From: an archaeon
GTDB taxonomy: Archaea > Thermoproteota > Nitrososphaeria > Nitrososphaerales > CADDZS01
Direction of reading: 5' to 3'
Length of the DNA stretch: 63,080 nt
NCBI GenBank assembly: GCA_021806865.1
Contig: JAKAPU010000002.1
Location: forward strand, 1-63,080
Shown here: piece after piece, positions 12,069 to 54,434 of the stretch
Numbering within the stretch: the stretch's first letter is position 1
Layout: each line of letters opens with the position of its first letter
Position numbers and translations under genes: made by a program
The notes under the pieces: generated by a model
Databases searched by the model: none
Seen by the model: the letters and a program-made list of their open reading frames with translations, nothing else
Told to the model about the DNA's origin: nothing

Positions 12069-13529
12069 ATGAAATACGAGATGCAAAAGATCAGCCAGGT
12101 TGAACACAGAATCCTTTCCTCAGCGAAGGAGGGAATGCAGGTCCCGGTCACTATCTATGCAAGCGATGACCTGCTGGCTAAAATGGAGACTGACAGAACG
12201 ATAGATCAGGCGGTCAACGTGACCTACCTCAAAGGAGTAAGAAAGCATGTCATTGTCCTTCCAGACGGACATGAAGGGTACGGCTTTCCGATCGGAGGTG
12301 TCGCTGCCACCAATTTCGAGACCGGCATCATCTCGCCAGGCGGAGTTGGGTACGACATCAACTGTGGCGTGCGCCTAATTATCACAAATCTTCGAGAAAA
12401 GGACATTCGACCAAAGCTGCAGACACTGGTCAGAACAATCTTTGACGCGGTACCCTCGGGATTGGGCAGCAGCGGAGCCATCAGTCTTTCGACATCGGAA
12501 CTGGACAGAGTATTGTCACAGGGAATCAACTGGGCCATCGACAATGGCTACGCCACTTCGAGGGACAGAGAGTTTTGCGAAGAAAATGGAAAGATGCAGC
12601 ACAGTGATCCTTCCAAGGTGTCCGATCTCGCAAAGAAGAGGGGCGCGAAATCGCTTGGGACTCTAGGTTCTGGAAACCATTTTCTGGAAATTGAAACAGT
12701 CAACCAGTTATTCGATCAAAATGCAGCAACTTCCATGGGACTTAAATCTCCAGACCAGATCTGCGTTCTCATACACACCGGAAGTAGGGGACTTGGTCAC
12801 CAGGTTTGCAGCGACTATCTTCGCATAGTTGAGAGATCCGCAGACAAATACAAGATAGAGTTGCCGGACAGAGAACTCGCCTGCGCTCCAGCCGGTTCGA
12901 GGGAGGCTGAAGACTACCGCCTGGCCATGGGAGCCGCTCTGAATTACGCGTGGGCAAACCGTCAGTTCATAACGAATAGCGTGCGAAGAGCATTCGAAAG
13001 AGCCCTCGGCTTGAGCGAATCCGATCTCGGTATGAATCTGGTGTATGATGTTGCTCATAACATTTGCAAGGTGGAAGAGCATTCTGTGGATTTCGACAAT
13101 CCAAAGAAAAAGGAGAAGGTATTCGTCCATCGCAAGGGAGCGACACGGGCATTCCCAAAGGGAAGTGAGGAGATCCCAATTGCCTACAGGAGCATTGGAC
13201 AGCCAGTCTTCATTCCTGGGTCGATGGGTACCGCTTCGTGGGTTTTGCTGGGGCAGGAAAAGTCGCTCGATGCAAGCTTCGGTTCAACAGCCCATGGCGC
13301 AGGTAGGTTTCTATCGAGGGCGGCAGCGACACGTGCCTATCCATATCCGATGGTCATACAGGCACTCGAAGAGCGTGGAATCATACTCGAATCAGCGAGC
13401 CGGAAGGGAGTTGTGGAAGAGGCACCAGGGGCTTACAAGGATGTCGATGCGGTCGCCGAAGTCTCTGACAAAGTGGGGATCGCAAGCAAGGTGTGTCGAT
13501 TGACCCCGATTGCGGTAGTGAAAGGTTAG
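12069..13529 (+). CDS. rtcB: tRNA-splicing RNA ligase RtcB
   Basis: RtcB joins 2',3'-cyclic-phosphate or 3'-phosphate RNA ends to 5'-OH ends using GTP and manganese, sealing spliced tRNA halves and introns in archaea. The 486 residues are full length and no intein is present. Recognisable motifs are GGVGYDINCGVR (metal-binding Asp and Cys), GSGNHFLE, HTGSRGLG and the HGAGR segment that carries the guanylylated His. No archease gene is beside it. It sits 63 bases after the phosphoribosyltransferase and 38 bases before the hydrolase. Confidence 0.96.
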   Translation: MKYEMQKISQVEHRILSSAKEGMQVPVTIYASDDLLAKMETDRTIDQAVNVTYLKGVRKHVIVLPDGHEGYGFPIGGVAATNFETGIISPGGVGYDINCGVRLIITNLREKDIRPKLQTLVRTIFDAVPSGLGSSGAISLSTSELDRVLSQGINWAIDNGYATSRDREFCEENGKMQHSDPSKVSDLAKKRGAKSLGTLGSGNHFLEIETVNQLFDQNAATSMGLKSPDQICVLIHTGSRGLGHQVCSDYLRIVERSADKYKIELPDRELACAPAGSREAEDYRLAMGAALNYAWANRQFITNSVRRAFERALGLSESDLGMNLVYDVAHNICKVEEHSVDFDNPKKKEKVFVHRKGATRAFPKGSEEIPIAYRSIGQPVFIPGSMGTASWVLLGQEKSLDASFGSTAHGAGRFLSRAAATRAYPYPMVIQALEERGIILESASRKGVVEEAPGAYKDVDAVAEVSDKVGIASKVCRLTPIAVVKG

Positions 13530-40709: not shown

Positions 40710-41444
40710 TCAATGTGTTGTAAAAAAGAAAAACTGCATAACAGAGAATAGGATGAGAAGCCCGATCAAAACTGCAGTCGCGATGCTTGTTGACAACCTG
40801 GAGGTGGAGACATTTTCGTACCTAGTAGCTTTGTCTTTCACAGAACGATAGAGCAGCGGGCCGGCAACGAACCCACCCAGTGCACCCCCCAGGTGAGCGA
40901 CCCAATTGATATTTGGAAGAATGAAACTGCTGCCGACAAACAATACCAAGAAGAACCCCAGCGTAGGTCCGTCAATTTTCTTCTCTGACGCCCAAGTGTA
41001 AGAGAAAGTCGCAGCAAACAATCCGAATATTCCACCAGATGCTCCTGCGCTCAGATAGGCAGGCCCTTGGAGCAACGTAATGATATTCCCCAAAATAGCA
41101 GTAAGAAAGAAGACGAGGAAGTATCGAGATTTGTTGAGCGAGTTATCAATGAATCTGTCAAGAATCAATACCGCAACTGCATTGAAGCCTGCATCCAGAA
41201 TGTAATCTGTTACGAGTATAGACGAGAACAGCTGCCAGTAGGCGTGGTAATATACTACGAGCCCATTATTCTGTGCAAGATAGTCGGTGGCGGTATCGCA
41301 GAAGCTAGATGAAAGCGAAGGCGGACATACGATGAAGCCGTCTCCGGTAATACCTATTATCCAACCAATGAAGATGCCTACTGCTAATATCCACCCTGGT
41401 CTGATATCCGCCCATCGGAAACGAAAAGCGTCTTCGTAATTCAG
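40710..41444 (-). CDS. Rhomboid-family intramembrane serine protease, start codon unclear
   Basis: Rhomboids cleave membrane proteins inside the bilayer. The catalytic Ser is in GASGGIFGLF and the His in NWVAHLGGALGGF. The usual front half (WILAVGIFIGWIIGI; YHAYWQLFSSILVTDYILDAGFN) is encoded in the same frame upstream of the first ordinary start, a TTG at 41168. Tracing upstream to the in-frame stop at 41451-41453, I find no ATG, GTG or TTG; a CTG at 41444 is the first reasonable codon. Either a rare start is used or a frameshift has cut off the original start. Six membrane segments are otherwise intact. Confidence 0.75.
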   Translation of the reverse strand: MNYEDAFRFRWADIRPGWILAVGIFIGWIIGITGDGFIVCPPSLSSSFCDTATDYLAQNNGLVVYYHAYWQLFSSILVTDYILDAGFNAVAVLILDRFIDNSLNKSRYFLVFFLTAILGNIITLLQGPAYLSAGASGGIFGLFAATFSYTWASEKKIDGPTLGFFLVLFVGSSFILPNINWVAHLGGALGGFVAGPLLYRSVKDKATRYENVSTSRLSTSIATAVLIGLLILFSVMQFFFFTTH

Positions 41445-41533: not shown

Positions 41534-41905
41534 CTACTCTTTGGATCTCTTTTTGGTCAAAGGCTTTTCTGACAAGAGCTCCAAGATCTCCTCGCCAAGA
41601 TTGGAGTTACCGATCGGATCAGTAGAGACTAGCAATACATGATCTCTGTCCAAGTTGAAAGTGAAAATATGCACCAGTTCTCTCTTGTCTAAGAGATACC
41701 TCCTCCTTCCCAGATACTTGTTCCAGTCGCTTCCTGATCGATGCATCGTAGTCCACTGCAAGTAAAGCTGCTCTGCCTGAGAAGCCGGTTCGAGTGACTT
41801 TGTATCCGAACGCATTCCACCCTTGATCAGCTTGCCGTCCGGACCAATAACAGCCGCAAAACGTACGACTGGATTCTCTCTGAGCACATCCTCGATACTG
41901 GACAT
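41534..41905 (-). CDS. Small roadblock/profilin-like conserved archaeal protein
   Basis: The 123-residue protein opens with an alpha-helix and strand pattern (VVRFAAVIGPDGKLIKGGMR) typical of roadblock/LC7-like or profilin-like folds. The centre has RRRYLLDKRELVHIFTFNLDRDHVLLVSTDP, and a basic tail ends it (LTKKRSKE). Related proteins occur in several copies in thaumarchaeal genomes as uncharacterised families; this is from memory of family style, not a search. No function is known to me. Confidence 0.65.
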   Translation of the reverse strand: MSSIEDVLRENPVVRFAAVIGPDGKLIKGGMRSDTKSLEPASQAEQLYLQWTTMHRSGSDWNKYLGRRRYLLDKRELVHIFTFNLDRDHVLLVSTDPIGNSNLGEEILELLSEKPLTKKRSKE

Positions 41906-43280: not shown

Positions 43281-44441
43281 TCATTCAGAGGATTCGTCCA
43301 TGCCGAGCCCGAGCAAAGCAGCAACCTGTCCTGCTTGTGGCCCAAGCACCTTGAGTTTTTCTTTGACAGCCCTGGAATCCAAAGTCTCGCTGTCTCGTGT
43401 TAGTGGCCCCTCGCCGAGGGAAGTCTTGTCAATCTGCTCCCTAATTTTCGGCGCCATTGCCTTCCAGGATTTCTCCTGGAAATTTTCGCAGTCTAGATCT
43501 TCAAGAATACTCTTGCCGCTGTTGACTATTTTAGTCAGACCAACTTTGCGTCTTTCTAGATCGTTGATACCAAGCCAAAGGCGCTCCATAGAGCGAATGA
43601 AACCGTCAGTTTCAAGGTAAGCGTTGAGACCTGGATCCGCAGTCACGTCAACCGTCACTCCCCCTTGGGTGTGCTGAAGGGTCAATGACGAATGTGTTCC
43701 TTGCCTAGTATACACAATCTTGAGTCGAGATTCCTTTTCCGAGTCTAAGCATTCTGCGATAAGACTGCTTTCAGTTATTTCGGCACCCAGCAGGATGTAC
43801 TGATCCAAACGTTGATATTCAGCCACGGGTTCCTTCTTTAGCCAGCTTTTTCCCAGTCCGACTGGAATCCGCAGGGTCCGGTCGAATTGGCCCAGCCTGA
43901 ATATTCCTCGGAAGAATGGACTAGCCTTCGTATCTAATGAGAATTCGTACTGAATGTCATCTTCGCATCTGTATCTAGCGATGGCGCCGTATGCAGACTC
44001 TTTGAACTCCACAACAATCGATCTCTCGACTAGGGCAAGCGGAGATACCGCGAGGAAGGCTTCCAGACTCTTTACGGTCTTGGTTCTTTCAGACTTTAGG
44101 TCGAAAACAAGTTGATCCAGTTGCTTTTGGGATTCCGCCGTAATCTTTTCTTTCATCTGATCAACTGCGATCGTAGTGAAACCCATTACTTGCTTTGACA
44201 ATTCTTGGACTCTAGCTTCGCCAAGACCATCCTTGAGCTTCTCAATCGCCTCTGTGATGTCAATTTTGAGTGTCTCCAAAGAAAGGAGCCTATTCTCAAT
44301 CGAGTCCTTGGCTTCCACGATACTGCGATCGAGCTCTTTGCTCCGTTGCAAATATCGCATCGAATCAACCAAGCTAGAGAAGGCCTGTTTGACTAATCTC
44401 TGCTCAGGCGAAGACAGATAGTGCTGGCTCGGAAGCATCAT
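43281..44441 (-). CDS. Hypothetical coiled-coil protein, 386 residues
   Basis: The N-terminal 130 residues are predicted long helices (RSIVEAKDSIENRLLSL, DQMKEKITAESQKQLDQLVFDL). A strand-rich middle follows (about 135-290; YRCEDDIQYEFSLDT, SRLKIVYTRQGTHSSLTLQHT), then another helical region. It ends close to the GPQAGQVAALLGLG segment. No membrane segment, nucleotide motif or Cys cluster is seen, and I cannot name a family. It has the look of a cytoplasmic scaffold protein. Confidence 0.7.
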   Translation of the reverse strand: MMLPSQHYLSSPEQRLVKQAFSSLVDSMRYLQRSKELDRSIVEAKDSIENRLLSLETLKIDITEAIEKLKDGLGEARVQELSKQVMGFTTIAVDQMKEKITAESQKQLDQLVFDLKSERTKTVKSLEAFLAVSPLALVERSIVVEFKESAYGAIARYRCEDDIQYEFSLDTKASPFFRGIFRLGQFDRTLRIPVGLGKSWLKKEPVAEYQRLDQYILLGAEITESSLIAECLDSEKESRLKIVYTRQGTHSSLTLQHTQGGVTVDVTADPGLNAYLETDGFIRSMERLWLGINDLERRKVGLTKIVNSGKSILEDLDCENFQEKSWKAMAPKIREQIDKTSLGEGPLTRDSETLDSRAVKEKLKVLGPQAGQVAALLGLGMDESSE

Positions 44442-45254
44442 TATCTTGGAGGATGTAAGAATTCTATAACTTTAACGGTATCCACCCTGTCTCTCACGCA
44501 AGAGATAAGAAATAGGGCGATGTGGAGTAATTTCTTGCATTTGCCACAATTAGGTCGAATAAGGAGGTTGCGAAAATCATCAAAGCAAGTTTACAAAAGT
44601 GACAATATTACAAATATTCAGCCTGTAGTTGTTAATGCATGCGCGAATGAAGAGAGCATAAACTGGAATGAGGCCATTTTAAGATCTAACTTTGCATTCC
44701 AAATCAAACCAAGGATTAGAAGCATACACTCGCACGCAACATTTCTGGAATCGGAGCACACAAGTTGTTCAATTTCGAACCTTGCTCTCGAATGTACAAG
44801 CAGTAATTGTAAGACCGATACTCAAGTGTAAGACAGATGGATCTCCAACGGCAGGTTGCAATTCCACGCCCCCGTGTTTGTTACTTATATTTCGTTAGGT
44901 AAATTTCTACGGTGGCAATACAGTCTCCGAAAATGTCTATCAAAAAGAAAAAGTAGAGATGGCCTCAAGACAGGCTCTATAATGAAAGGCTCGGCAATCG
45001 AAGCGATTTGTCAAGCAGTCCGTCTGTGCGCCATCTTTCGCACTACTTTTTCTTGGATTTCTTTGCCTTTTTCTTTGCAGGCATTTTAATTAGCATTATC
45101 TTTGATGCCTTCGCTCACTTAAAAATGATTTGTTTTTCATTCAGATCTCGCAACTGACCATTTGGACTCAAATTCAATTGCGCTAAAATTTGGAACTGGA
45201 ATCGTCGAGGCTAAACGTTCATTAGCATCTGTGCATTAGGGCAGTCATAGAATA
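44442..45254. other. Long gene-poor interval (about 810 bases)
   Basis: No convincing gene longer than a few codons is seen. Frames of 68-136 codons on the plus strand have random-looking composition. Two tiny Lys-rich frames lie here: MSIKKKKK on the plus strand (about 44933-44959) and a 13-residue one on the minus strand at 45043-45084. The interval is AT-rich, is bounded by minus-strand genes on both sides, and may hold a decayed gene or an unrecognised RNA. Confidence 0.5.
45043..45084 (-). CDS. Possible 13-residue lysine-rich peptide (MPAKKKAKKSKKK)
   Basis: ATG at 45084 and TAG at 45043-45045 bound a 13-codon frame with nine Lys. On this strand a TATA-like TTTTTAAGTG lies about 35 bases upstream, so a nearly leaderless mRNA is possible. 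Small Lys/Ala-rich basic proteins of MPAKKK type are known among archaeal chromatin or ribosome-associated peptides, though usually longer. Chance cannot be excluded at this size. Confidence 0.25.
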   Translation of the reverse strand: MPAKKKAKKSKKK

Positions 45255-46478
45255 TTATGTCAGGGCCATGAGAACCACTAAGGCGATAATTCCAAGCGCA
45301 GAATTTGCATAAAATGGGAGCTGAGGAACAATCGAAAACAAATAGCCGCTGAGAAGAAGCGCAGGTATTGTTGGAAGGAGCGTTACAGAATAGAAGATGC
45401 CCATCGATTGGCCCCTGCTCTTCGGATCTGAAGCTTCAGCGACCCATGCGTTCACTGCAGGAGCATCCATCACACCGAAAAGCATCCAAAACGCAATTCC
45501 AATCACAGCTACTTCCGGCATTGTCCTAGGAGCAAAAACGAAAACGTAGACTATACTTATTTCGCCAATCCAGCTGATCACTACAGTCTTCTTTCTTCCG
45601 ATACTGTCAGACAATCTGCCAAACGGCACCCTAGAGAGAGCCACAGCCGCAAGGAGGGCAGAGAAGAGTATGCCTAGAGTTATCGGGTCGAAACCTAGCA
45701 CGTGTCTTGCGTAGAGAGGCGTAATGAACGAGTTTTGATCAGCAAGTATGTTGTACATGCTATAAACGAGAATTAGTATAGACAATGTCCTGTTATTCAT
45801 CATTTGTCTGATTCCAGCGAAAGATGAAAAGAAGCTGTGACCCGATATCGCTGACCTTCTGGAGGCCGGAAGAGTTTCTTTTAGGTACAGAATCCTGGCC
45901 AAAGCTGCAATGAGGGTCAGACAACCTCCCACCACAAAAAGCAGTAGATAGCCACGATTTGAGATAGTCACTCCTCCAAGTAACGGCGAAAATGCGGCCG
46001 CTACGTTTGAGAGCATCGAGTAGGTCCCAAAGGCTTGCCCACGTTTGCTCTTTTCTGCGGATTCGGCAACCAATGTATTTGCGACGCGGAAAAACGAGCT
46101 TCCCAACCCGGAAATTGGTAGAGCAATCGCCGCAAGCAAAAGACTGTTAGACGCTGCAAATAGGAACACGGCAGCAGCGGAGATCAAACTGGAAGCGACG
46201 ATCATGTTCTTTCTTCCATACGCATCTGCAAGCAAACCCGCGGGGGCAGAACCTAATGCCGCTGTTGCAAGCCACACTGCGTAGATTGCGGAAATTTCCA
46301 TAGGAGTGGCGTTGTAGGTTTCAGAGTAATATATCGGCAGAAAATAGAACCAGAGCGTGTTGCCGAAAGTCGCGACCATTGAGCTAAGTCCCATAACTAG
46401 CACATTGCTTCCTAATTGTGCTATTGCTGGTTCATCTTCAGAATGCAAGAAAAATTTGATTCCATTTGCGAAATCCAC
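45255..46478 (-). CDS. Major facilitator superfamily transporter
   Basis: The 407-residue protein has about twelve membrane helices. The loop 2-3 motif is GLLADAYGRKNMIV and the matching loop in the second half is FGRLSDSIGRKKTVV, both canonical MFS signatures. The general make-up is that of drug/metabolite proton antiporters. It is not closely similar in wording to the MFS gene at 26150, so a recent duplication is unlikely. About 250 bases of AT-rich DNA separate it from the FAH gene. Confidence 0.88.
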   Translation of the reverse strand: MDFANGIKFFLHSEDEPAIAQLGSNVLVMGLSSMVATFGNTLWFYFLPIYYSETYNATPMEISAIYAVWLATAALGSAPAGLLADAYGRKNMIVASSLISAAAVFLFAASNSLLLAAIALPISGLGSSFFRVANTLVAESAEKSKRGQAFGTYSMLSNVAAAFSPLLGGVTISNRGYLLLFVVGGCLTLIAALARILYLKETLPASRRSAISGHSFFSSFAGIRQMMNNRTLSILILVYSMYNILADQNSFITPLYARHVLGFDPITLGILFSALLAAVALSRVPFGRLSDSIGRKKTVVISWIGEISIVYVFVFAPRTMPEVAVIGIAFWMLFGVMDAPAVNAWVAEASDPKSRGQSMGIFYSVTLLPTIPALLLSGYLFSIVPQLPFYANSALGIIALVVLMALT

Positions 46479-46732
46479 ACTTATATCAAGTTAGTAGGTA
46501 TTCCAAAGCGCCTTCATTCGCGCTTGCATTGAAATCGTGAGCAGATGTTACCACAACTCACAAAAACGGAAGACACAAGTCGTGATGATACTTGCTGGTC
46601 TGCGCCGACTGAAAATGACAAGAAGGCACCTATCGCGTTCTCTCTAATCGCATAAGCCTTGTCTCTAACTCACAACGGTGCGCAGCTTACGGCAAGGCTT
46701 ATTATTTCTTCACGTAACAAAATGAATTCGCT

Positions 46733-47725
46733 ATGCGACTAGTGACATTTGAAGAACCTCATTATCATCGTGAGAGATTGGGAATTTGGATTGGGCAGGA
46801 TGATATTGTTGACGCAAACTTTGCATACGCCAAGATGCTGAAAGATCAGGGCGAAGACTATCCCGCTCGTTTTGCAGATGCGTTCGTACCTCCGAACCTG
46901 CTTCTCTTGCTCCAAGGAGGTAAGAAATCAATGGATGCTGTTCGACAAGCCGAGAAATTTGCCGAAGATTATGGCGTTTCAAAGTTTACCGGTGCCGAAG
47001 GCGAGGAATCTGTGTTCAAATTCTCAAAGGTGAAAATTAAAGCCCCAGTGACGCATCCAGGGAAGATAATACACACAGCTGGAAACTTTAGAGAACATGC
47101 AAAGGAAGGTACAGATTCCGGTTGGGAATTTCCAATGCCTCACTGGATCTCGTTCTTGAAAAGCCCATCCTCGATCGTCGGCCACGAGGGGAAAGTAATT
47201 CATCCAAAATATACGAAAACACTTGACCATGAAATCGAGCTTGCGATAATCATTGGTAAGAAATCCAAGTACCTCACGAAGGAAAATGCTTGGGATGCAA
47301 TTGCGGGTTTCACAATCTTCAACGATATCACAGCGAGAGATATCCAGAGAGAAGAGATGAAATCAGGTCTTCTTAATTTCGGTAAAAATATGGATACGTT
47401 CGGATTGTTTGGCCCCTGCTTTGTTCCGAAGGAAGACATCGGAAATGTTCACAAATTGAAGATTGAGTGTAGAGTAAATGGCGACCCCCGCCAAGTAAGC
47501 AATACCGATCACCTCTCGGTAACAATCCCTGAAATAGTGGAGCATTATTCTTGGGTCACACTCTTTCCCGGAGACATAATCACTACTGGAACAGTATCTG
47601 GAGTTGCAGCGTTCAGAAAGGATCCCGAGAAATACTGGCTCAAACCAGGAGACGTCTTAGAATCTGAGATTGAGAACATTGGTGTTCTCAGAAACCACAT
47701 TGTTGAAGAAAAAGGCAACTTCTGA
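46733..47725 (+). CDS. Fumarylacetoacetate hydrolase (FAH) family protein
   Basis: The 330-residue protein has the FAH C-terminal fold with metal-binding acidic residues in LDHEIELAIIIGK and GFTIFNDITARD, the opening KIIHTAGNFREHAKE and closing motif PGDIITTGTVSGV. The family includes fumarylacetoacetases, acylpyruvases and oxaloacetate decarboxylases, all acting on C-C bonds next to a dicarbonyl. The exact substrate is open. It has its own upstream region; iPGM starts 208 bases downstream. Confidence 0.9.
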   Translation: MRLVTFEEPHYHRERLGIWIGQDDIVDANFAYAKMLKDQGEDYPARFADAFVPPNLLLLLQGGKKSMDAVRQAEKFAEDYGVSKFTGAEGEESVFKFSKVKIKAPVTHPGKIIHTAGNFREHAKEGTDSGWEFPMPHWISFLKSPSSIVGHEGKVIHPKYTKTLDHEIELAIIIGKKSKYLTKENAWDAIAGFTIFNDITARDIQREEMKSGLLNFGKNMDTFGLFGPCFVPKEDIGNVHKLKIECRVNGDPRQVSNTDHLSVTIPEIVEHYSWVTLFPGDIITTGTVSGVAAFRKDPEKYWLKPGDVLESEIENIGVLRNHIVEEKGNF

Positions 47726-47933
47726 TTGCAGCAACTGGGATTCTCGCTAGGGCAACAATCTCAGTCCGACTGAGCAGGACAAGAAAGTTAGATGCTTGAC
47801 TCCCCTCCAAGCAATGCTCAGACAACTAGCAATCGCAAGCATTCCAGTGTCCCTGATGTCAGCTTTCTTGCCCAAACCCAGAGTAATCATCATATCATCG
47901 TCGTGTTGCAAGAGGGGCCGGAAAGTGTCTTAG

Positions 47934-49520
47934 ATGAACAAAGCACTACGACGTAAGAATACACCAGATAAAGTAGTGCTTGTTGTGCTTGACGGATGGG
48001 GTATCTCTCCCAAGAGAGAGCATAATGCGATCGCAATTGCAAACAAGCCACACTTCGAATCGATAGAGAAGCAGTACGGGGAAACACAGATCTGTGCGTC
48101 AGGAACCTGCGTCGGATTGACTCAAGGTCAGATGGGCAATTCCGAAGTCGGTCATCTGACTATAGGTGCAGGGCGAATAATCTTCCAAGACCTTATGCGC
48201 GTGTACGACGAAATCAATTCTGGGGGACTCAGGCGAAATGCAAAGCTTGCGGCGTCGCTTCGCTTGGCAAAGACAAAGCAGTCGACCGTTCACTTCATGG
48301 GGCTACTTTCCGACGGCGGAGTCCACAGCCACATGAATCACCTATTCGCGCTCCTAGACATTGCTAAGAGCTACGGGATCAACAAGATTGCAGTTCACGC
48401 TTTCCTGGATGGCAGAGACACACCTCCGAAGAGCGGCTCGACTCACATAGCGTCGCTTCTGAAGTATTTGGGTTCTCTTCAATGTGGGACTCTGGAAACG
48501 ATCTCGGGCAGGTTCTACGCAATGGACAGAGATAACAGGTGGGATCGGACAAAGAAAGCCTACGATGCGATAGTCTTCGGCAAAGGCGAGACATTCACCG
48601 ATCCGGTACAAGCCATTGAACAATCTTATGCAAACGGGGTGACCGATGAGTTTGTGATTCCAAAGGTACACGAGGACTATGGCGGCCTGTCGAATGGTGA
48701 TGTTGTTCTTTTTTTCAATTTCAGGCCGGACCGAGCGCGGCAGCTCACAAAGGCTCTTTCATTCAACCGAAGCGAATTTGGGAACAAATTCGATAGAGAT
48801 GAGCAAAAGCGCCCTAAGTCAATCGACATGATCTCAATGACTGTCTATGATTCCGGCTTCAAGAACGTGAAAGCGTTGATCGGACGAGAGCGCGTTCCCG
48901 ATACGCTTAGCAACGTCTTGGAGAAAAATGGAATCCGCCAGCTCAGAATCGCGGAGACAGAAAAATACGCACACGTCACTTACTTCTTCAACGGATTGAT
49001 AGAGAAACGGCGCAAGCTAGAAGATAGAGTACTAGTACCTTCAGTGAAAGTTGGAACATATGACAATAGCCCAGAAATGAGTGCACGTGAGATTGCTAGC
49101 GAAGCTGTCAAGGCAATGGAAACTGGGCGATACGGTTTCATCCTGATCAACTTCGCTAATGCCGACATGGTTGGGCACTCCGGAAATGTCCCTGCCACCG
49201 TAAGAGCTGTTGAAACGGTTGATGAGTGTCTCGGGAAGCTCTTTGAGTCGTGGGAAAAGATTGCAGAAAGTACCACCATGATGATCACTGCTGATCACGG
49301 TAATGCTGAAAAGATGTATGATGAAAGTACAGGACAGCCTCACACAGCGCATACATCGAACCCAGTACCTTTGATTCTTGTTTCAAAGAAATGGAAATTG
49401 GAATCGCAGCAGAAAGAGGATTTGGGCCTGAAAGATATTGCACCAAGTATTCTAAGAATCATGGGTTTGCAAAAGCCACGAACGATGACTGGCCAACCCT
49501 TTGTGACCGAGTCGAAGTAG
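47934..49520 (+). CDS. gpmI: 2,3-bisphosphoglycerate-independent phosphoglycerate mutase, bacterial GpmI type
   Basis: The enzyme interconverts 3- and 2-phosphoglycerate using two manganese ions. The 528-residue length and motifs VVLVVLDGWGISP, the catalytic Ser in QMGNSEVGHLTIGAGR, HAFLDGRDTPPKS, FNFRPDRARQL and MMITADHGNAEKM mark the GpmI form. The shorter archaeal ApgM form is the commoner type in many archaea. All visible metal and substrate residues are present. It stands alone between intergenic regions of 208 and 252 bases. Confidence 0.95.
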   Translation: MNKALRRKNTPDKVVLVVLDGWGISPKREHNAIAIANKPHFESIEKQYGETQICASGTCVGLTQGQMGNSEVGHLTIGAGRIIFQDLMRVYDEINSGGLRRNAKLAASLRLAKTKQSTVHFMGLLSDGGVHSHMNHLFALLDIAKSYGINKIAVHAFLDGRDTPPKSGSTHIASLLKYLGSLQCGTLETISGRFYAMDRDNRWDRTKKAYDAIVFGKGETFTDPVQAIEQSYANGVTDEFVIPKVHEDYGGLSNGDVVLFFNFRPDRARQLTKALSFNRSEFGNKFDRDEQKRPKSIDMISMTVYDSGFKNVKALIGRERVPDTLSNVLEKNGIRQLRIAETEKYAHVTYFFNGLIEKRRKLEDRVLVPSVKVGTYDNSPEMSAREIASEAVKAMETGRYGFILINFANADMVGHSGNVPATVRAVETVDECLGKLFESWEKIAESTTMMITADHGNAEKMYDESTGQPHTAHTSNPVPLILVSKKWKLESQQKEDLGLKDIAPSILRIMGLQKPRTMTGQPFVTESK

Positions 49521-49736
49521 CAGGCTGTTTGTGACCCGTGGCGACGCATAGTCTGCAGTTTGTTTTTCGCAGATCAATCATGATCTTTCGTCAAAATCGA
49601 ATTGGCCCGATGCCTATTCTTGACCAAAAGCCGAAATCCGCCGCCCACCTTTTGATGTCCATTCCAACTACACATTGTAGTCTATTAACCACGAAGTATT
49701 TGCTGTTCTGACAATATTAATTGAATAATTAGGTGA

Positions 49737-49748
49737 ATATTATATATC
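49737..49748 (+). promoter_or_regulatory. Strong TATA box before the PLIEPEW-repeat miniprotein
   Basis: ATATTATATATC lies within a very AT-rich stretch and is centred about 26 bases before 49769, predicting a leader of only about four bases before the ATG at 49773. It is one of the best TATA matches I see in the window. Confidence 0.6.
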
Positions 49749-49772
49749 AGTAGTTAACTCTCTCAACTCGCC

Positions 49773-49949
49773 ATGTCAGTCAGAAGAACACCTCTCATAG
49801 AACCAGAATGGAAACAGGCCCCTCTAATCGAGCCGGAATGGAGACAGGCCCCACTCATAGAACCAGAGTGGAAGTCAGCTCAGAATTTCGGACGAGTCGC
49901 CGTAGCTGAGATCGGATCCAGAGGACCCGCGATCGAAAGCCTCTGGTAA
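49773..49949 (+). CDS. 58-residue protein with three tandem PLIEPEW repeats
   Basis: ATG 49773 to TAA 49947-49949. After MSVRRT the unit PLIEPEW-K/R-Q/S-A is repeated three times in tandem (30 bases each), followed by a tail containing RVAVAEIGSRG and ending ESLW. The repeat codons differ mostly at silent positions (for example CTC/CTA, ATA/ATC, GAA/GAG, CCA/CCG), while protein changes are only K/R and Q/S. That pattern is expected if the peptide is under selection. It has a strong TATA box and is followed by hairpins and a terminator. I know no such family; the regular acidic-aromatic motif suggests a multivalent binding peptide. Confidence 0.75.
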   Translation: MSVRRTPLIEPEWKQAPLIEPEWRQAPLIEPEWKSAQNFGRVAVAEIGSRGPAIESLW

Positions 49950-50040
49950 GGAACAGCACTAAAACAAGGAAAATCGACATCTATAGACAAAGCTTTGTGC
50001 CTTGTCTCCACTTCCACAATGTGGGAGAAAACAAGTGGAG
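49950..50040 (+). other. Hairpin-rich 3' region of the repeat-miniprotein transcript
   Basis: Between the miniprotein stop and the terminator are the palindrome ACAAAG-CTTTGT (49987-49998) and a longer stem CTCCACTT (50006-50013) with AAGTGGAG (50033-50040), enclosing a CCAC-AAT-GTGG hairpin. This is much more structure than an ordinary intergenic tail and could act as a stable 3' UTR or a processed small RNA. Confidence 0.5.
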
Positions 50041-50074
50041 GGTTGGCGAAGAGCCAACCTCCCCCAACTTTTTT
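50041..50074 (+). terminator. Hairpin plus T-run terminator
   Basis: GGTTGGC (50041-50047) pairs perfectly with GCCAACC (50053-50059) around a GAAGA loop. After a C-rich spacer six T follow (50069-50074). The element ends two bases before the convergent ftsZ stop. The T-run serves plus-strand transcription from the miniprotein gene. Confidence 0.6.
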
Positions 50075-50076
50075 GT

Positions 50077-51135
50077 TTACCTTGCTCGCAGTAGCCTTGA
50101 TACTTTTCCTGGTTGTTCCGAAAGGAACGTGCTTTCCACTCCGGTCAGTACAACCATGACTCTTACTCTACCCTGAAGTGTTGGATCGACTCTCGCTCCC
50201 CAGACGACACGCGCCTTTGGTGGGAGAGATCTTGTGATCATTTCTCCGGCTTGCGTGACTTCATCCAGTGTGATGTCTTCTCCACCCGAAACGTGTATCA
50301 GAACACCGAATGCTTTTGTCGAATCCTTGATGTCGAGAAGCTGTGCATCGAGAGCTGACTGAACTGCTCTTTCGATTCTGTCTTCGCCTGACGACTCGCC
50401 CACTCCCATCGCGGCAATTCCTTTCTTCTCCATGATCGCTCTAATATCCGCAAAGTCGATGTTGATCAAACTCGCGGTGGTGATGGTTTCGGTGATTCCC
50501 TTGACAAACTCACCAACGAGTTCATTTGCTACACCCAGTGCCTCTTTCAGCGGCAAGTCTCCTGCAACTTTTGCCAGTTTGTTGTTGTCGATCACAACAA
50601 CTGTATCACATTGCGATTTCAGTCGTTCAAGTCCTTCCTTTGCACTGTTGTAGCGGAATCTCTCGACTGCAAACGGAAGAGTTACTACTCCTATCATCAA
50701 TGCTCCGGAAGGTCTCAAAGCGTTTGCGATGACCCACGAGGCACCTGTTCCAGTACCTCCTCCTAAACCGGTTGCTACATAGATTATGTTCGAACCAGCT
50801 GTGTCCTTCTTTACCTGCTCAACAGATTCGCGGGCAGCCTGCTCTCCACGCTGAGGATAGCCTCCTGCTCCCATTCCTCTGGTCGTTTTCTCTCCGAGCA
50901 ACACTCTCCTGTCGGCTTTCACGATGCTGAGATGTGTTGCATCAGTATTAGCCGCGATAAGCTTCGCTCCTGAGACTCCGCCCTTCTTCTCTTTGACCCA
51001 TGAGACAATGTTGCATCCAGCGCCTCCGACTCCGATCACAGAGACCTGTGGTCGCGACGCTCGCATAATTGCCTCGATTCTCTCCGACTCCAACATTTCG
51101 TCCATTCTTGCTTGAGTATCACTATCGTATGACAA
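50077..51135 (-). CDS. ftsZ: Tubulin-like GTPase FtsZ
   Basis: FtsZ polymerises with GTP. The 352 residues contain VIGVGGAGCNIV, the signature GGGTGTG at 125-131 (ATGLGGGTGTGAS), the GTP-contact NSAKEGLERL area and an intact T7 loop (INIDFADIRAIM) that completes the catalytic site of the next subunit. It is thus a canonical FtsZ and not a degenerate or CetZ-like form. The short C-terminal tail (SEQPGKVSRLLRAR) may bind partners. Many archaea of this group also divide with Cdv/ESCRT proteins, none of which are in the window. Confidence 0.95.
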   Translation of the reverse strand: MSYDSDTQARMDEMLESERIEAIMRASRPQVSVIGVGGAGCNIVSWVKEKKGGVSGAKLIAANTDATHLSIVKADRRVLLGEKTTRGMGAGGYPQRGEQAARESVEQVKKDTAGSNIIYVATGLGGGTGTGASWVIANALRPSGALMIGVVTLPFAVERFRYNSAKEGLERLKSQCDTVVVIDNNKLAKVAGDLPLKEALGVANELVGEFVKGITETITTASLINIDFADIRAIMEKKGIAAMGVGESSGEDRIERAVQSALDAQLLDIKDSTKAFGVLIHVSGGEDITLDEVTQAGEMITRSLPPKARVVWGARVDPTLQGRVRVMVVLTGVESTFLSEQPGKVSRLLRAR

Positions 51136-51303
51136 GCCAATGATCGATTCACTTCGTGCTTAAGCATATTATACCGTTTGTGAAGCCGAAAAGAGTAACT
51201 GCGACACGAATCTGGATTGAGATATTGCGATCAGTATTGTGAATCCAGATGTAAAGAGTAAGTCAGTTTCTGTCGCACAAGTACTAGTTTATAGTCCGCT
51301 TCC

Positions 51304-51861
51304 ATGTCAACGGTTGTGCGAGCGGGCTCGGCTTTGGACTACAGTGAACTCAAAAAAAGACTTCGGGTGCTTCCTGATTGGCCAAAGAAAGGAGTCAATT
51401 TCATTGACATCACGACTGTGCTTCATGATCCAAGATCCTTTCACATTATGACAGATGCGCTGGCCAGTCACTTCGCCAGTTCAATGATTGATGTGGTTGT
51501 GGGAATAGAGGCCCGTGGCTTCATCATTGGAGCACCAGTTGCCTACTTGCTGAATGCTGGCTTTGTGCCTGCACGCAAGAAAGGAAAGCTACCTGCAAGC
51601 AAACTCACCATGGAATACGCGCTGGAATACAGTTCCGAAATGCTTGAAATGCACAAGGATTCGATTTCTTCCGGACATCGGGTGGTGATCATAGACGATC
51701 TGCTCGCCACTGGAGGGACTGCTGAGGCCACAGCGAAACTCGTCGAACAAATGGGGGGTGTTGTGGTCGGGTTCGGCTTCTTGGTGGAACTAGATTTTTT
51801 GAAAGGGAGAAAGAAGTTCGAAAGCCATGATATTGTTTCATTAGTTCATTACGACCAGTGA
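51304..51861 (+). CDS. apt: Adenine phosphoribosyltransferase
   Basis: Apt salvages adenine to AMP using PRPP. The 185 residues have the family opening LKKRLRVLPDWPKKGVNFID, the GIEARGFIIGAPVAYLL segment and the PRPP loop RVVIIDDLLATGGTAEA. The ordering and length match bacterial-type Apt. It is divergent from ftsZ and convergent with the nucleotidyltransferase gene, whose operon also contains a phosphoribosyltransferase-fold regulator. Confidence 0.93.
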   Translation: MSTVVRAGSALDYSELKKRLRVLPDWPKKGVNFIDITTVLHDPRSFHIMTDALASHFASSMIDVVVGIEARGFIIGAPVAYLLNAGFVPARKKGKLPASKLTMEYALEYSSEMLEMHKDSISSGHRVVIIDDLLATGGTAEATAKLVEQMGGVVVGFGFLVELDFLKGRKKFESHDIVSLVHYDQ

Positions 51862-51887
51862 AGCTTTGCTCAGCCGTAATATCATAA

Positions 51888-52679
51888 TTAGGGCGATTCA
51901 GGGAGGACGTACCATTTTACCTTGTCACCAACCCTGGCACGCATCTTCCACGAAAAGGACTTTGGAGCCGCTTCAATTGCAGTCTTGAGTTCAGCGAGCC
52001 TATGTGTGACAACTTTCTGATCTTCTTCAGGGATGAAAAGCTCTGGGAGCATCTCGATTATCTTGTCAATATTCATTGTAAGAGTTTTCCAGACTCCCCA
52101 GTCGTTTGAAGCAAGAGATACAAGCCTATGTTTTTCGATCACCGAGCCCTTCGGATTCTTCTCATCAGACATAGGATTGTCAAGAATGAGCGCGATTAGG
52201 TCCGTGATGTCTTTCCTGTTTATCTCTACAATCTGAAGCTTGGTGAGCAACAAATCGGCGGGCGAAAGTGCCCTGTCTAACAACTCTAACCTATCCTTGA
52301 AATCAAATTCATGGCACATTACAAACTTGTCCAGAAAAATGTCGATTCTCCTACCGTTAGTCTCGTCAATGAAGAGCAAGCGGGTATCACCCTGAAGTTT
52401 GTTAAAGAGTCCCTTCGTCTTGTAACCCAGATCCTCGAATAATGATTCAATATACTTCCCTTGCTTGCGAAGACCGACAAAGTCAAGATCGTGATAATGC
52501 CGCGCATACGTTGGCTTTGAAGCAGATGGGGAACTGAACCATACACCAACGCCGCCCAGCAGTCTGATTATTATCTTTCGCTCACGTGCGAAATGGAGAA
52601 TCCTGTCCGCCTCGAGGAATACATTCGGTTGAATAGTTGTTCCGGGTTGATTTCTTTCCGTTTTGCTTGCCACCTCCAT
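51888..52679 (-). CDS. Nucleotidyltransferase-superfamily protein (possible AbiEii/MenT-like)
   Basis: The 263-residue protein shows a Pol-beta-type nucleotidyltransferase front: LLGGVGVWF, then HYHDLDFVGL with the paired acidic residue, and a third acidic candidate in RRIDIFLDKF. The helical part after it includes LSPADLLLTKLQIVEINRKDITDLIALI, as in many AbiEii/COG2253-like proteins. Those families include tRNA-targeting toxins and housekeeping enzymes, and I cannot tell which applies. It is the third gene of a tight minus-strand operon, nine bases after the phosphoesterase stop. Confidence 0.7.
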   Translation of the reverse strand: MEVASKTERNQPGTTIQPNVFLEADRILHFARERKIIIRLLGGVGVWFSSPSASKPTYARHYHDLDFVGLRKQGKYIESLFEDLGYKTKGLFNKLQGDTRLLFIDETNGRRIDIFLDKFVMCHEFDFKDRLELLDRALSPADLLLTKLQIVEINRKDITDLIALILDNPMSDEKNPKGSVIEKHRLVSLASNDWGVWKTLTMNIDKIIEMLPELFIPEEDQKVVTHRLAELKTAIEAAPKSFSWKMRARVGDKVKWYVLPESP

Positions 52680-52688
52680 GGAGATCCC

Positions 52689-53648
52689 CTAGCCACTCAC
52701 TAGCAAATAGTCGGACAATTTCCTTTCTTCCAGGTCCACAATTGCCCCTCTGAGGATTCCCTGTCCATATTCGGAGCCTGGATTGACACAAATGGTGCGC
52801 CCTAATTTGTAAATTCCTCGTGATTCATGAATGTGGCCGTGAAGGCCGAGAATCGGTTGATATTTCTCGATGGCCTGTCTGACTGCAGAGCTTCCAGCAG
52901 GTATCATCACAGGGTGGCCTCCCTTCATAACTGGTTTGAAATTCTCGTCGATTTGGGGCGCTGCATCAATGCCAGATTCGATTGGTGGGACATGAACACT
53001 GAAAATGGAATTGTGTAAGTCTTTAGTCTTCGCTGCCAAGTCATCGAGCTTCTTCTCAAGAGTTTCTTCGTCCGCTTCTCGAGGGCTGTTCCAAGGAGTT
53101 CTGTTGCTGGTTCCGAGAGACAGCATCTCATGACCAGCAATATCCACAATTTCTTCCTCACAGTAAATCACGTTCTCTGACGCGTTCGCTTTGAGTGTCT
53201 CGTCCACGATGAAGTCATCGTCGTTTCCCACAGAGATGTAGCATTTTACTCCGCTCTCCTTCAGTCTTTCCGCAGCAAGCTTCATCCATCTCGCTAATGA
53301 AGCCCGCATAGCATTAGCGAAGGCAGCGTCCACTTTTTCCTTGCTCGATTGGATCTCGTCGAAATCCTTCTTGGAGAGTCTGATCGAATAGATGCCCCCT
53401 TCTGAAAGATTCTTCTCGAATTCAGCTATCTTGTCCTCCTTGGTAAAGGACATATGGTCACCAAGATAGTCCGCAGACCACTTGCCTGGACCTTCCTCAA
53501 CAATTGGCACCATTATCTTTCCAGTGATGTCTCCGCCAAGAATCAGGTACTGCGCATTGTAGAATTTTGCAGCATTGATGAACTTACGAAAGCATCTGTC
53601 TGATCCATGTACGTCGGTGACAAAAAACAGTCTGCTTTTCTTTCCCAA
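52689..53648 (-). CDS. Calcineurin-like metallophosphoesterase
   Basis: The 319-residue protein has the five metallophosphoesterase blocks: FVTDVHGSD, LILGGDITG, ISVGNDDDF (GNxD/E type), FSVHVPPIE (a His-containing block) and LGLHGHIHES (GHxH). This supports a two-metal phosphatase or phosphodiesterase active on nucleotides or phosphoproteins. A helical insert occupies about residues 65-125. The gene lies six bases after the HTH-phosphoribosyltransferase stop, so it is translationally close to its neighbours. Confidence 0.88.
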   Translation of the reverse strand: MGKKSRLFFVTDVHGSDRCFRKFINAAKFYNAQYLILGGDITGKIMVPIVEEGPGKWSADYLGDHMSFTKEDKIAEFEKNLSEGGIYSIRLSKKDFDEIQSSKEKVDAAFANAMRASLARWMKLAAERLKESGVKCYISVGNDDDFIVDETLKANASENVIYCEEEIVDIAGHEMLSLGTSNRTPWNSPREADEETLEKKLDDLAAKTKDLHNSIFSVHVPPIESGIDAAPQIDENFKPVMKGGHPVMIPAGSSAVRQAIEKYQPILGLHGHIHESRGIYKLGRTICVNPGSEYGQGILRGAIVDLEERKLSDYLLVSG

Positions 53649-53654
53649 CGAATC

Positions 53655-54434
53655 TCACCACTGACCCAAGTCAAACAAAACCGAAATCTTGGCATCCTTC
53701 TCCAGTGCCTGAGCGATTCTGTCTTTCCAAATATCACTCTTTGAAGCGAGGACAAAAATCCCAGATACACTGCAACCCGCCGCTCTTGCAAGTGAAACAA
53801 GTCCCGACATCGTCCTGCCCGAGGTTGCAACGTCGTCGACTATTATTATCGAGCTATCCTTCTTAATGAGATTCTTTGGCAGGTACAAAGTCGAAACTTC
53901 AGAAGGATTAGTCGATGGCAGATCAGCTTCATAGTAAGCACCTGCGCCAGAAGATTTCGAACGGGTCGCGTAGATCACAGGAACTTGCATCTGGATCGCA
54001 ACAGCCGTCGCAAGAGTAATGCCAGAGGCGGCCGCAGTTAATACAAGATCATATTTAATCTTGGAATATTGCATGGCCACCTCTGCGGAAATCCATCGCA
54101 ACGCGTGAGGATCTCCAGTAACTTGATGCAGATCCAAATATCCGTTTGGTGCGACAACCATCTTTTGCTTGAGCTTGTCTTTGAATCCAGATTTCTTTAG
54201 CAATGTTCTTTCAAGCAAATCGGCCTGTTCTCTGGATGGCCGTGTTGAGCCAGTGACATATCTGCAAAGCAAAGTTGGATGGACTCCACTCAAAGACTCC
54301 ATCTGCGCATAAGTCATACCCCCCTTGAGTATTCTAAGTCGTTCTACCACAGATTGCACATACTCGAATGACAAGGCTGGCCCGACTTTCTCCCTTGAAC
54401 CAGCACTTCTTGCTTTCCGTTCGGTGTCCTGCAT
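53655..54434 (-). CDS. gfcR: HTH plus phosphoribosyltransferase transcription regulator (GfcR/PyrR-like archaeal type)
   Basis: The 259-residue protein has an N-terminal helix-turn-helix (about 25-75, MTYAQMESLSGVHPTLLCRYVTG) and a C-terminal type I phosphoribosyltransferase domain with the PRPP loop IIIVDDVATSGRT. Archaeal proteins of this two-domain design act as regulators that sense PRPP or nucleotides (GfcR in haloarchaea controls sugar catabolism). Transferase activity is possible but not required. It leads a three-gene operon and is divergent from an APC permease across an inverted repeat that could be its operator. Confidence 0.85.
   Translation of the reverse strand: MQDTERKARSAGSREKVGPALSFEYVQSVVERLRILKGGMTYAQMESLSGVHPTLLCRYVTGSTRPSREQADLLERTLLKKSGFKDKLKQKMVVAPNGYLDLHQVTGDPHALRWISAEVAMQYSKIKYDLVLTAAASGITLATAVAIQMQVPVIYATRSKSSGAGAYYEADLPSTNPSEVSTLYLPKNLIKKDSSIIIVDDVATSGRTMSGLVSLARAAGCSVSGIFVLASKSDIWKDRIAQALEKDAKISVLFDLGQW

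What the first reader, a model, noticed from the sequence alone, without database searches (positions are those of the whole stretch)
49737..50074. Undescribed 58-residue triple-repeat protein (PLIEPEW x3) with strong promoter and structured 3' end
Seen: ATG 49773 to TAA 49949 encodes three tandem PLIEPEW units. Codons differ among repeats mostly at silent positions, while protein changes are only K/R and Q/S, so the peptide sequence itself seems selected. A very good TATA box predicts a near-leaderless mRNA, and the transcript ends in stacked hairpins and a T-run terminator. A transcript with a strong promoter, a short repeat protein and a structured 3' end suggests an abundant product. Inference: a multivalent peptide that binds a repeated partner, or a dual protein/RNA gene. 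It is convergent with ftsZ, which may or may not matter.
Basis: partly seen in the sequence, partly recalled or inferred. Interest (0 to 1): 0.82.

Follow-up and report, generated by a model that had tools for sequence, protein, structure and literature searches.

The report
Archaeal mini-protein with matched tryptophan repeats
This is a real, apparently undescribed family of tiny archaeal proteins built mostly from two to four copies of one short docking-like word whose copies tend to change together from relative to relative, which suggests that all copies fit the same unknown partner.

Summary
The ORF is real: ATG 49773 to TAA 49949 encodes 58 residues with three PLIEPEW units. It belongs to an orphan family of 29 relatives besides itself (after dropping 5 CRISPR-like translations). 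The 7 relatives whose listing names a taxon are all Nitrososphaerota/Nitrososphaerales. Pfam, NCBIfam, PHROGs, PADLOC, PDB, phage and plasmid searches gave no credible match.

The unit is P-x-[IV]-E-P-E-W, followed by a GRV-type spacer and a C-terminal variant P-x-h-[EQR]-x-[LV]-W-COOH (25 of 30).

Main new observation: residues 2-3 of the unit differ between relatives (nine types) but match among the intact units of one protein in 27 of 28 (0 of 20,000 shuffles), in 10 of the 11 that are not LI. Linkers meanwhile stay position-specific, and the window's units differ at all six degenerate codons by silent changes only. Recent copying of whole units explains this poorly; selection for identical units, as expected if all bind one partner site, explains it better.

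The promoter is plausible but not unique. The 3' structure is modest on both strands, lies between convergent genes, and gives no support for an RNA gene. Nothing links it to FtsZ except position. Partner unknown; relatives' DNA and neighbourhoods could not be fetched.

The parts
49740..49747 (+). TATA-box-like TTATATAT, about 30 nt upstream of the start codon; would predict a transcript start a few nt before the ATG
   Evidence: 1 match in window, 0.63 expected; position read; the start site is inference
49773..49949 (+). 58-residue protein, whole gene
   Evidence: 29 further family members
49791..49811 (+). unit 1, PLIEPEW
49821..49841 (+). unit 2, PLIEPEW
49851..49871 (+). unit 3, PLIEPEW
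49872..49925 (+). spacer KSAQNFGRVAVAEIGSRG (a loose G-[RH]-hydrophobic motif is present in 29 of 30 members)
49926..49946 (+). terminal variant unit PAIESLW, ending in the C-terminal tryptophan
   Evidence: pattern in 25 of 30 members; 0.4% of shuffled tails match the unit as well
50040..50074 (+). hairpin (50040-50060) and T6 run (50069-50074), probable transcript end
   Evidence: sequence, folds; not listed by the terminator scan; function is inference
50077..51135 (-). ftsZ, convergent neighbour (context only, no functional link shown)
   Evidence: Pfam Tubulin 3.3e-40, FtsZ_C 4.1e-28

Best explanation
A small, largely disordered multivalent docking protein. Its internal P-x-[IV]-E-P-E-W units (2-4 intact ones in 28 of 30 members) and a terminal P-x-h-[EQR]-x-[LV]-W-COOH unit are short linear motifs. 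The nearly invariant I/V-E-P-E-W part would make the common contact. Position 2 (and 3) would be tuned to the pocket of one partner that all internal units bind, so that when the partner site changes, every unit changes with it. The short linkers put neighbouring units about 10 residues (at most roughly 3.5 nm of chain) apart, so the partner should be an oligomer or filament with closely spaced copies of one site, or a single domain that rebinds along the chain. Shown: coding selection, family, coordinated unit change, position-specific linkers, silent divergence of the window's units, low-confidence structure prediction. Inferred: disorder, binding, a single partner site, an oligomeric partner.
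For: Family of 30 in which the P, E, P, E and W of the units are among the invariant or nearly invariant columns. 27 of 28 proteins with at least two intact units have identical residues 2-3 in all intact units although nine types occur; 0 of 20,000 permutations reach this, maximum 13. Of the 11 proteins that are not purely LI, 10 are homogeneous. On a tree built without those columns the states need 10 changes, and II occurs in two separate places. Linkers are conserved by position: same-position identity 0.306 against a permuted mean of 0.155, 0 of 5,000, in the 21 three-unit members. A clear pair is P0011/P0012 (84% identical): all three I become V while the linkers still begin N, R and E. 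In the window all six degenerate codons of the unit have changed silently and none changed the protein. AlphaFold gives mean pLDDT 57.6 and pTM 0.16 for the window protein (alignment of 30) and 60.0 and 0.15 for the four-unit P0007 (alignment of 20 of the 30), as for a disordered chain. Variable unit number argues against a closed fold.
Against: No partner is identified and no relative's neighbourhood could be examined. Position 2 ranges over L, I, V, Y, F, K and A, hard to place in one pocket. 17 of 28 proteins are LI, where sameness may just be retained ancestry. P0024 is mixed (F, F, M). Counting units with up to two mismatches, P0021 (Y, F, F, Y) and P0030 are mixed at position 2 too: 27 of 30. 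P0007, P0020, P0021 and P0022 also carry a further, strongly degenerate N-terminal unit-like stretch PL[TAM]VP[EG]R with L, not Y, at position 2; counting it would make 24 of 30 homogeneous. The number of changes on the tree (10) is no lower than in shuffles (mean 10.9, minimum 9). Low AlphaFold confidence with few sequences is weak evidence of disorder. Silent divergence was read in one genome only.
Confidence: 0.5

Rival explanations
1. DNA-level homogenisation: slippage or short gene-conversion tracts between the 30-bp repeats spread a changed position 2 to all units, and the rest is ordinary purifying selection on EPEW.
For: Tandem 30-nt repeats are natural substrates; unit number varies; position 2 takes chemically unlike residues (K, A, Y, L) that are hard to reconcile with one pocket. 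Linker first residues are somewhat more alike within proteins (0.16) than between different positions across proteins (0.08); P0027 has N after all three units.
Against: Linkers next to the units stay position-specific (0 of 5,000 permutations), so tracts would have to be about 21 bp or shorter. In the window, units 2 and 3 differ silently at 6 of 6 degenerate codons, so no recent copying between them.
Confidence: 0.22
2. A precursor of several short peptides (multi-core modified peptide or signal peptide), each PxIEPEW unit being a product read by one receptor or enzyme.
For: Several near-identical units that change together are what such precursors can show (the comparison is recalled). A rhomboid-type protease match lies at 40710-41168, about 8.6 kb away.
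Against: Only 6 residues precede unit 1 in the window, with no room for a leader or secretion signal; the C-terminal part is conserved too; no modifying enzyme or peptidase was recognised among the 10 proteins from 43281 to 54434 scanned; Cys in 1 of 30 members.
Confidence: 0.12
3. A small folded or co-folded subunit (for example of the ribosome or an enzyme) in which each unit is a structural module and the C-terminal strand pair forms a core.
For: Two short strands predicted at 41-44 and 53-56 at low confidence; exact 10-residue period between intact units in 18 of 28 members (linkers).
Against: No confident fold for two family members, and the strands are not reproduced as such for P0007; no PDB sequence match up to E 10 for the 19-member profile; variable unit number and linker length.
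Confidence: 0.13
4. A non-coding or dual-function RNA gene, or a chance ORF over a CRISPR-like repeat.
For: Some database hits with PLIEPEW (P0031-P0035, and locus L050) look like translated CRISPR repeats; the 3' end folds somewhat better than shuffles.
Against: Here the 30-nt units abut without spacers, differ only silently inside the motif, and the protein is kept in 29 relatives with conserved ends. No Rfam match in the window; the opposite strand folds as well.
Confidence: 0.03

Closest known systems
Amino-acid tandem repeats (aaTR) of Borg elements of Methanoperedens (PMC9879509; matching passages seen)
   Same: Archaeal; tandem peptide units in-frame, predicted disordered, resembling short linear motifs; homologous proteins carry related units.
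   Different: Borg repeats are described there as recently formed and fast evolving, with perfect or nearly perfect units, mostly creating new disordered regions in existing proteins. Here the units are silently diverged, shared across a family, and with the terminal variant make up about half of a 58-residue protein.
Disordered repeat linkers of pyrenoids, EPYC1 and CsLinker (PMC11570498; matching passages seen)
   Same: Largely disordered protein with repeated elements that bind one site on an oligomeric enzyme.
   Different: That pipeline looks for elements 20-120 residues apart; here the period is about 10. The linker elements there are helices. No partner is known here.
MIM2 motif of CdvB/ESCRT-III (PMC5840170; matching passages seen)
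   Same: Proline-rich short motif in archaea that docks to an ATPase.
   Different: The MIM2 consensus given there is absent in 30 of 30 members and has no tryptophan.
CRISPR-like arrays such as L050 in Acetoanaerobium pronyense
   Same: One reading frame of the repeat spells PLIEPEW.
   Different: Spacing of 65-68 nt with differing sequence between the repeats against 30 nt with no spacer here; read as an accidental match.

Membership tests
PxIEPEW orphan family (defined here) | two or more P-x-[IV]-E-P-E-W units | tested here: met
   3 in the window protein; at least 2 intact units in 28 of 30
PxIEPEW orphan family (defined here) | C-terminal P-x-h-[EQR]-x-[LV]-W-COOH | tested here: met
   PAIESLW; 25 of 30 members, [LV]W end in 28 of 30
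Borg-type aaTR proteins | units identical or nearly so at DNA level | tested here: not met
   83% and 77% DNA identity to unit 1, differences in the core all silent
Borg-type aaTR proteins | lies on a Borg extrachromosomal element | not tested
   the window carries chromosomal-type genes such as ftsZ, an EIF_2_alpha and a DNA_primase_S match, but its replicon was not determined
EPYC1-type condensate linkers | repeated elements spaced 20-120 residues apart | tested here: not met
   period 10 residues in the window
EPYC1-type condensate linkers | multivalent binding to one oligomeric enzyme | not testable with these tools
   no partner known
MIM2 motif proteins | consensus phi-P-x-phi-P-x-x-P-phi-P (from PMC5840170) | tested here: not met
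   0 of 30
PCNA-interacting (PIP) peptides | Q-x-x-h-x-x-aromatic-aromatic (consensus recalled) | tested here: not met
   0 of 30
Proteasome-docking HbYX tails | C-terminal hydrophobic-Tyr-any (consensus recalled) | tested here: not met
   0 of 30
CRISPR array | repeats separated by unique spacers | tested here: not met
   units abut, 30-nt period; contrast L050
Multi-core peptide precursor | leader peptide before the cores | tested here: not met
   6 residues before unit 1 in the window
Multi-core peptide precursor | modifying enzyme encoded nearby | tested here: inconclusive
   none recognised among the 10 proteins, but 2 of the neighbours have no Pfam or NCBIfam match and a distant enzyme is not excluded

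The most novel reading that the evidence does not exclude
P-x-[IV]-E-P-E-W is the recognition word of an unknown archaeal docking system. A dedicated multivalent mini-protein, present in a set of Nitrososphaerales, presents several copies to one partner site, and at least seven times the partner's specificity and all intact copies of the word changed together, so the family records a series of ligand-receptor co-evolution events in which position 2 or 3 was rewritten in every unit at once.
Probability: 0.35. Interest if true: 0.75.

Novelty: new variant of a known kind. Interest (0 to 1): 0.52.

Why it matters
Multivalent short-motif proteins are familiar from eukaryotes and, as far as I recall, little described in archaea. 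Here about half of the protein is motif, and coordinated change of the units gives a ready co-variation signal for finding the partner: a protein whose pocket residues track the unit types. If true it would expose an archaeal interaction module that the libraries searched do not hold. If instead homogenisation explains it, the family is still a neat case of concerted evolution on a scale below 30 bp in a 58-residue gene.

Tried and rejected
RNA gene: no Rfam match in the window at gathering scores, modest folding on both strands. CRISPR origin: rejected. Known docking motifs MIM2, PIP and HbYX: 0 of 30 each. Known families: Pfam and NCBIfam on the 19 members of A2 (the other 11 members were not scanned, but the precomputed Pfam column is empty for all 35 hits), PHROGs and PADLOC on the 30 members of A3. 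Best E-values were 0.066, 4.7, 0.087 and 0.062, none credible. PDB sequences with the A2 profile: none up to E 10. Phage and plasmid records, window protein only: no match at E 1. Viral contigs with A1: 15 stretches held the pattern, none encoded a relative.

Literature, listings only unless said: 'PLIEPEW' 0 papers. 'IEPEW' 36 papers, 20 listed; by title none is about such a protein and many are Polish, so I take the matches to be Polish words, without opening them. Topic searches showed no description of this protein in the listed titles and abstract starts. FtsZ link: only convergent position; a scan of viral contigs for FtsZ relatives gave identities of at most 39% and a plasmid search only matches below 60%, neither used further. 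Fold search was not run because both models have low confidence.

Rows dropped: P0031-P0035 of the 35 hits, because they read PLIEPEWNVN with unrelated sequence between the units, as in L050; that is a judgement from the sequences. The homogeneity count leaves out P0022 and P0030 (fewer than two intact units). Looser counts, made by eye, are given in the Against line. P0019 and P0029 lack the C-terminal part and may be cut or misread. The linker counts use the 21 members with exactly three intact units.

Limits: both genome-contig scans are used (246 stretches, no relative; 27 stretches, one locus, the CRISPR array). The window's genome is not held and metagenome contigs had cap 0. So relatives' DNA, neighbourhoods, dN/dS between orthologues and co-occurrence could not be computed.

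Full report
What is there. The sequence and ORF list confirm ATG 49773 to TAA 49949, 58 residues: six residues, three abutting 10-residue units beginning PLIEPEW, then a tail ending GPAIESLW. The direct repeat is 3 copies of 30 nt. Within the three 21-nt PLIEPEW blocks 6 sites vary. They are the third bases of the six degenerate codons, all silent; the Trp codon cannot vary silently. Six single-base changes put at random on the block all stayed silent in 0, 0 and 1 of 200,000 simulations at three transition weights. Units 2 and 3 differ silently at 6 of 6 degenerate codons, units 1 and 2 at 4, and units 1 and 3 at 2.

It is a family. One search with the protein gave 6 hits including itself; a profile of these gave 19; a profile of the 19 gave 35 up to E 1. 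I kept P0001-P0030. I dropped P0031-P0035, which read PLIEPEWNVN with unrelated sequence in between. The only genome-contig hit (L050) is an array in which 25 copies spaced 65-68 nt were found in the stretch examined; its repeat spells the same peptide in one frame, so these five are most likely translated CRISPR repeats. Among the 29 relatives the 7 whose listing names a taxon are all Nitrososphaerota or Nitrososphaerales; 22 show no taxon name. The window itself is archaeal by content (EIF_2_alpha and DNA_primase_S matches); that it is Nitrososphaerales is inferred from the relatives. The genome-contig collection gave no member by exact peptide patterns, so the family may be rare among the species held there or missed by that method.

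Anatomy. Alignment A3 shows the unit P-x-[IV]-E-P-E-W, with three intact units in 21 of 30 members, two in 5, four in 2, one in 1 and none in 1. A loose G-[RH]-hydrophobic motif of the spacer is present in 29 of 30, and 28 of 30 end in [LV]W, 25 of them as P-x-h-[EQR]-x-[LV]-W-COOH. In the window the tail matches PLIEPEW at 4 of 7 positions, reached by 0.4% of shuffled tails, so the C-terminus is probably a variant unit; its position 2 does not follow the internal units (for example P0023: K, K, K, then A). AlphaFold finds no confident fold for the window protein (mean pLDDT 57.6, pTM 0.16, strands 41-44 and 53-56) or for the four-unit P0007 with 20 of the 30 members as alignment (60.0, 0.15).

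The striking pattern. Residues 2 and 3 of the unit vary between proteins (by first intact unit: LI 17; YI, II and FI 2 each; LV, IV, KI, VI and AI 1 each), yet all intact units of a protein agree in 27 of 28; 20,000 permutations never exceeded 13. The exception is P0024 (F, F, M). Since LI may be ancestral, the telling subset is the 11 proteins that are not purely LI: 10 are homogeneous. With units of up to two mismatches counted, position 2 agrees in 27 of 30 (P0021, P0024 and P0030 are mixed). Four members (P0007, P0020, P0021, P0022) also have a strongly degenerate N-terminal unit-like stretch with L at position 2; counting that too would leave 24 of 30. On a tree made without these columns (90 columns, many gapped, 28 members) the states need 10 changes, against a shuffled mean of 10.9 and minimum of 9; so the states are scattered and not one old split. 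Nine types need at least eight changes on any tree, or seven if the F type is set aside.

Copying or selection? Whole-unit copying should also copy linkers. Instead the residue after each W is position-specific in the 21 three-unit members: N most often after unit 1 (9 of 21), R after unit 2 (13), E after unit 3 (11). Same-position identity is 0.306 against 0.155 when units are permuted within proteins, 0 of 5,000. P0011 and P0012 (84% identical) differ by I to V in all three units while the linkers stay NxA, RQV and EA; P0005 and P0018 (83%) differ by L to I in both units with RxA and ESA kept. With the silent divergence in the window, this favours selection for sameness over recent homogenisation. 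Against this: linkers are somewhat more alike within proteins (0.16) than different positions across proteins (0.08); position 2 includes K, A and Y, which one pocket would hardly accept; and very short conversion tracts cannot be excluded without relatives' DNA.

Mechanism. The likeliest reading (0.5) is a disordered multivalent ligand: I/V-E-P-E-W makes the contact, position 2 is tuned to the partner, and several copies give avidity to a partner with several closely spaced identical sites. A 10-residue period, exact in 18 of 28 members (linkers), allows at most about 3.5 nm between neighbouring bound sites (inference from chain length), which makes linking two large separate enzymes by adjacent units, in the way of pyrenoid linkers, unlikely. 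Binding, partner and oligomeric state are all inferred.

Promoter and 3' end. TTATATAT at 49740-49747 is the only copy in the window, where 0.63 are expected. Against TTTATATA (recalled consensus) the best match within 60 nt upstream of this gene is 7 of 8, as for 3 others of the 30 starts scored; so it is good but not unique. The 3' region folds with z -1.91 on + and -1.97 on -. The hairpin and T6 lie next to the stop codon of convergent ftsZ (50077-51135), so a terminator is the simplest reading, although the consensus scan does not list one on the + strand. Rfam found nothing in the window.

Comparison with the known. Domain libraries, PDB sequences, phage and plasmid records gave no credible match. 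Borg tandem-repeat proteins (PMC9879509, passages) are the nearest archaeal kind I found but are described with young, perfect or nearly perfect units. Pyrenoid linkers (PMC11570498, passages) work like what I propose but with elements 20-120 residues apart. The MIM2 consensus (PMC5840170, passages) is absent in all 30. No paper in the searched library prints PLIEPEW.

Verdict. It is a new orphan family with an unusual mode of evolution and an unknown partner.

Noticed in passing
L050:7547-9192: A CRISPR-like array in Acetoanaerobium pronyense whose repeat CCCTTAATAGAACCAGAATGGAATGTAAAT spells PLIEPEWNVN in one frame; database proteins P0031-P0035 appear to be translations of such arrays and contaminate searches with this motif.
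   Followed up: yes
P0021, P0022, P0030 (proteins): Members with degenerate units (PYIEPES, PYIEPKQ, PYSQPEW, PSIEPTR), possibly decaying copies; P0007, P0020, P0021 and P0022 also have a degenerate N-terminal unit-like stretch.
   Followed up: partly
window 12069-13529 +: RtcB-family protein whose best NCBIfam match is an intein-containing RtcB model (below its cut-off), in two stretches with the best at model 578-961, so apparently without the intein part.
   Followed up: no
window 51888-52679 - and 43281-44441 -: Two sizeable genes, 263 and 386 aa, without a Pfam or NCBIfam match up to E 0.001.
   Followed up: no
window 53655-54434 -: Phosphoribosyltransferase with a weak N-terminal helix-turn-helix match, just under the cut-off of an NCBIfam adenine phosphoribosyltransferase model; a second phosphoribosyltransferase is at 51304-51861.
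   Followed up: no
window 41534-41905 -: DUF6659 match, function unknown.
   Followed up: no
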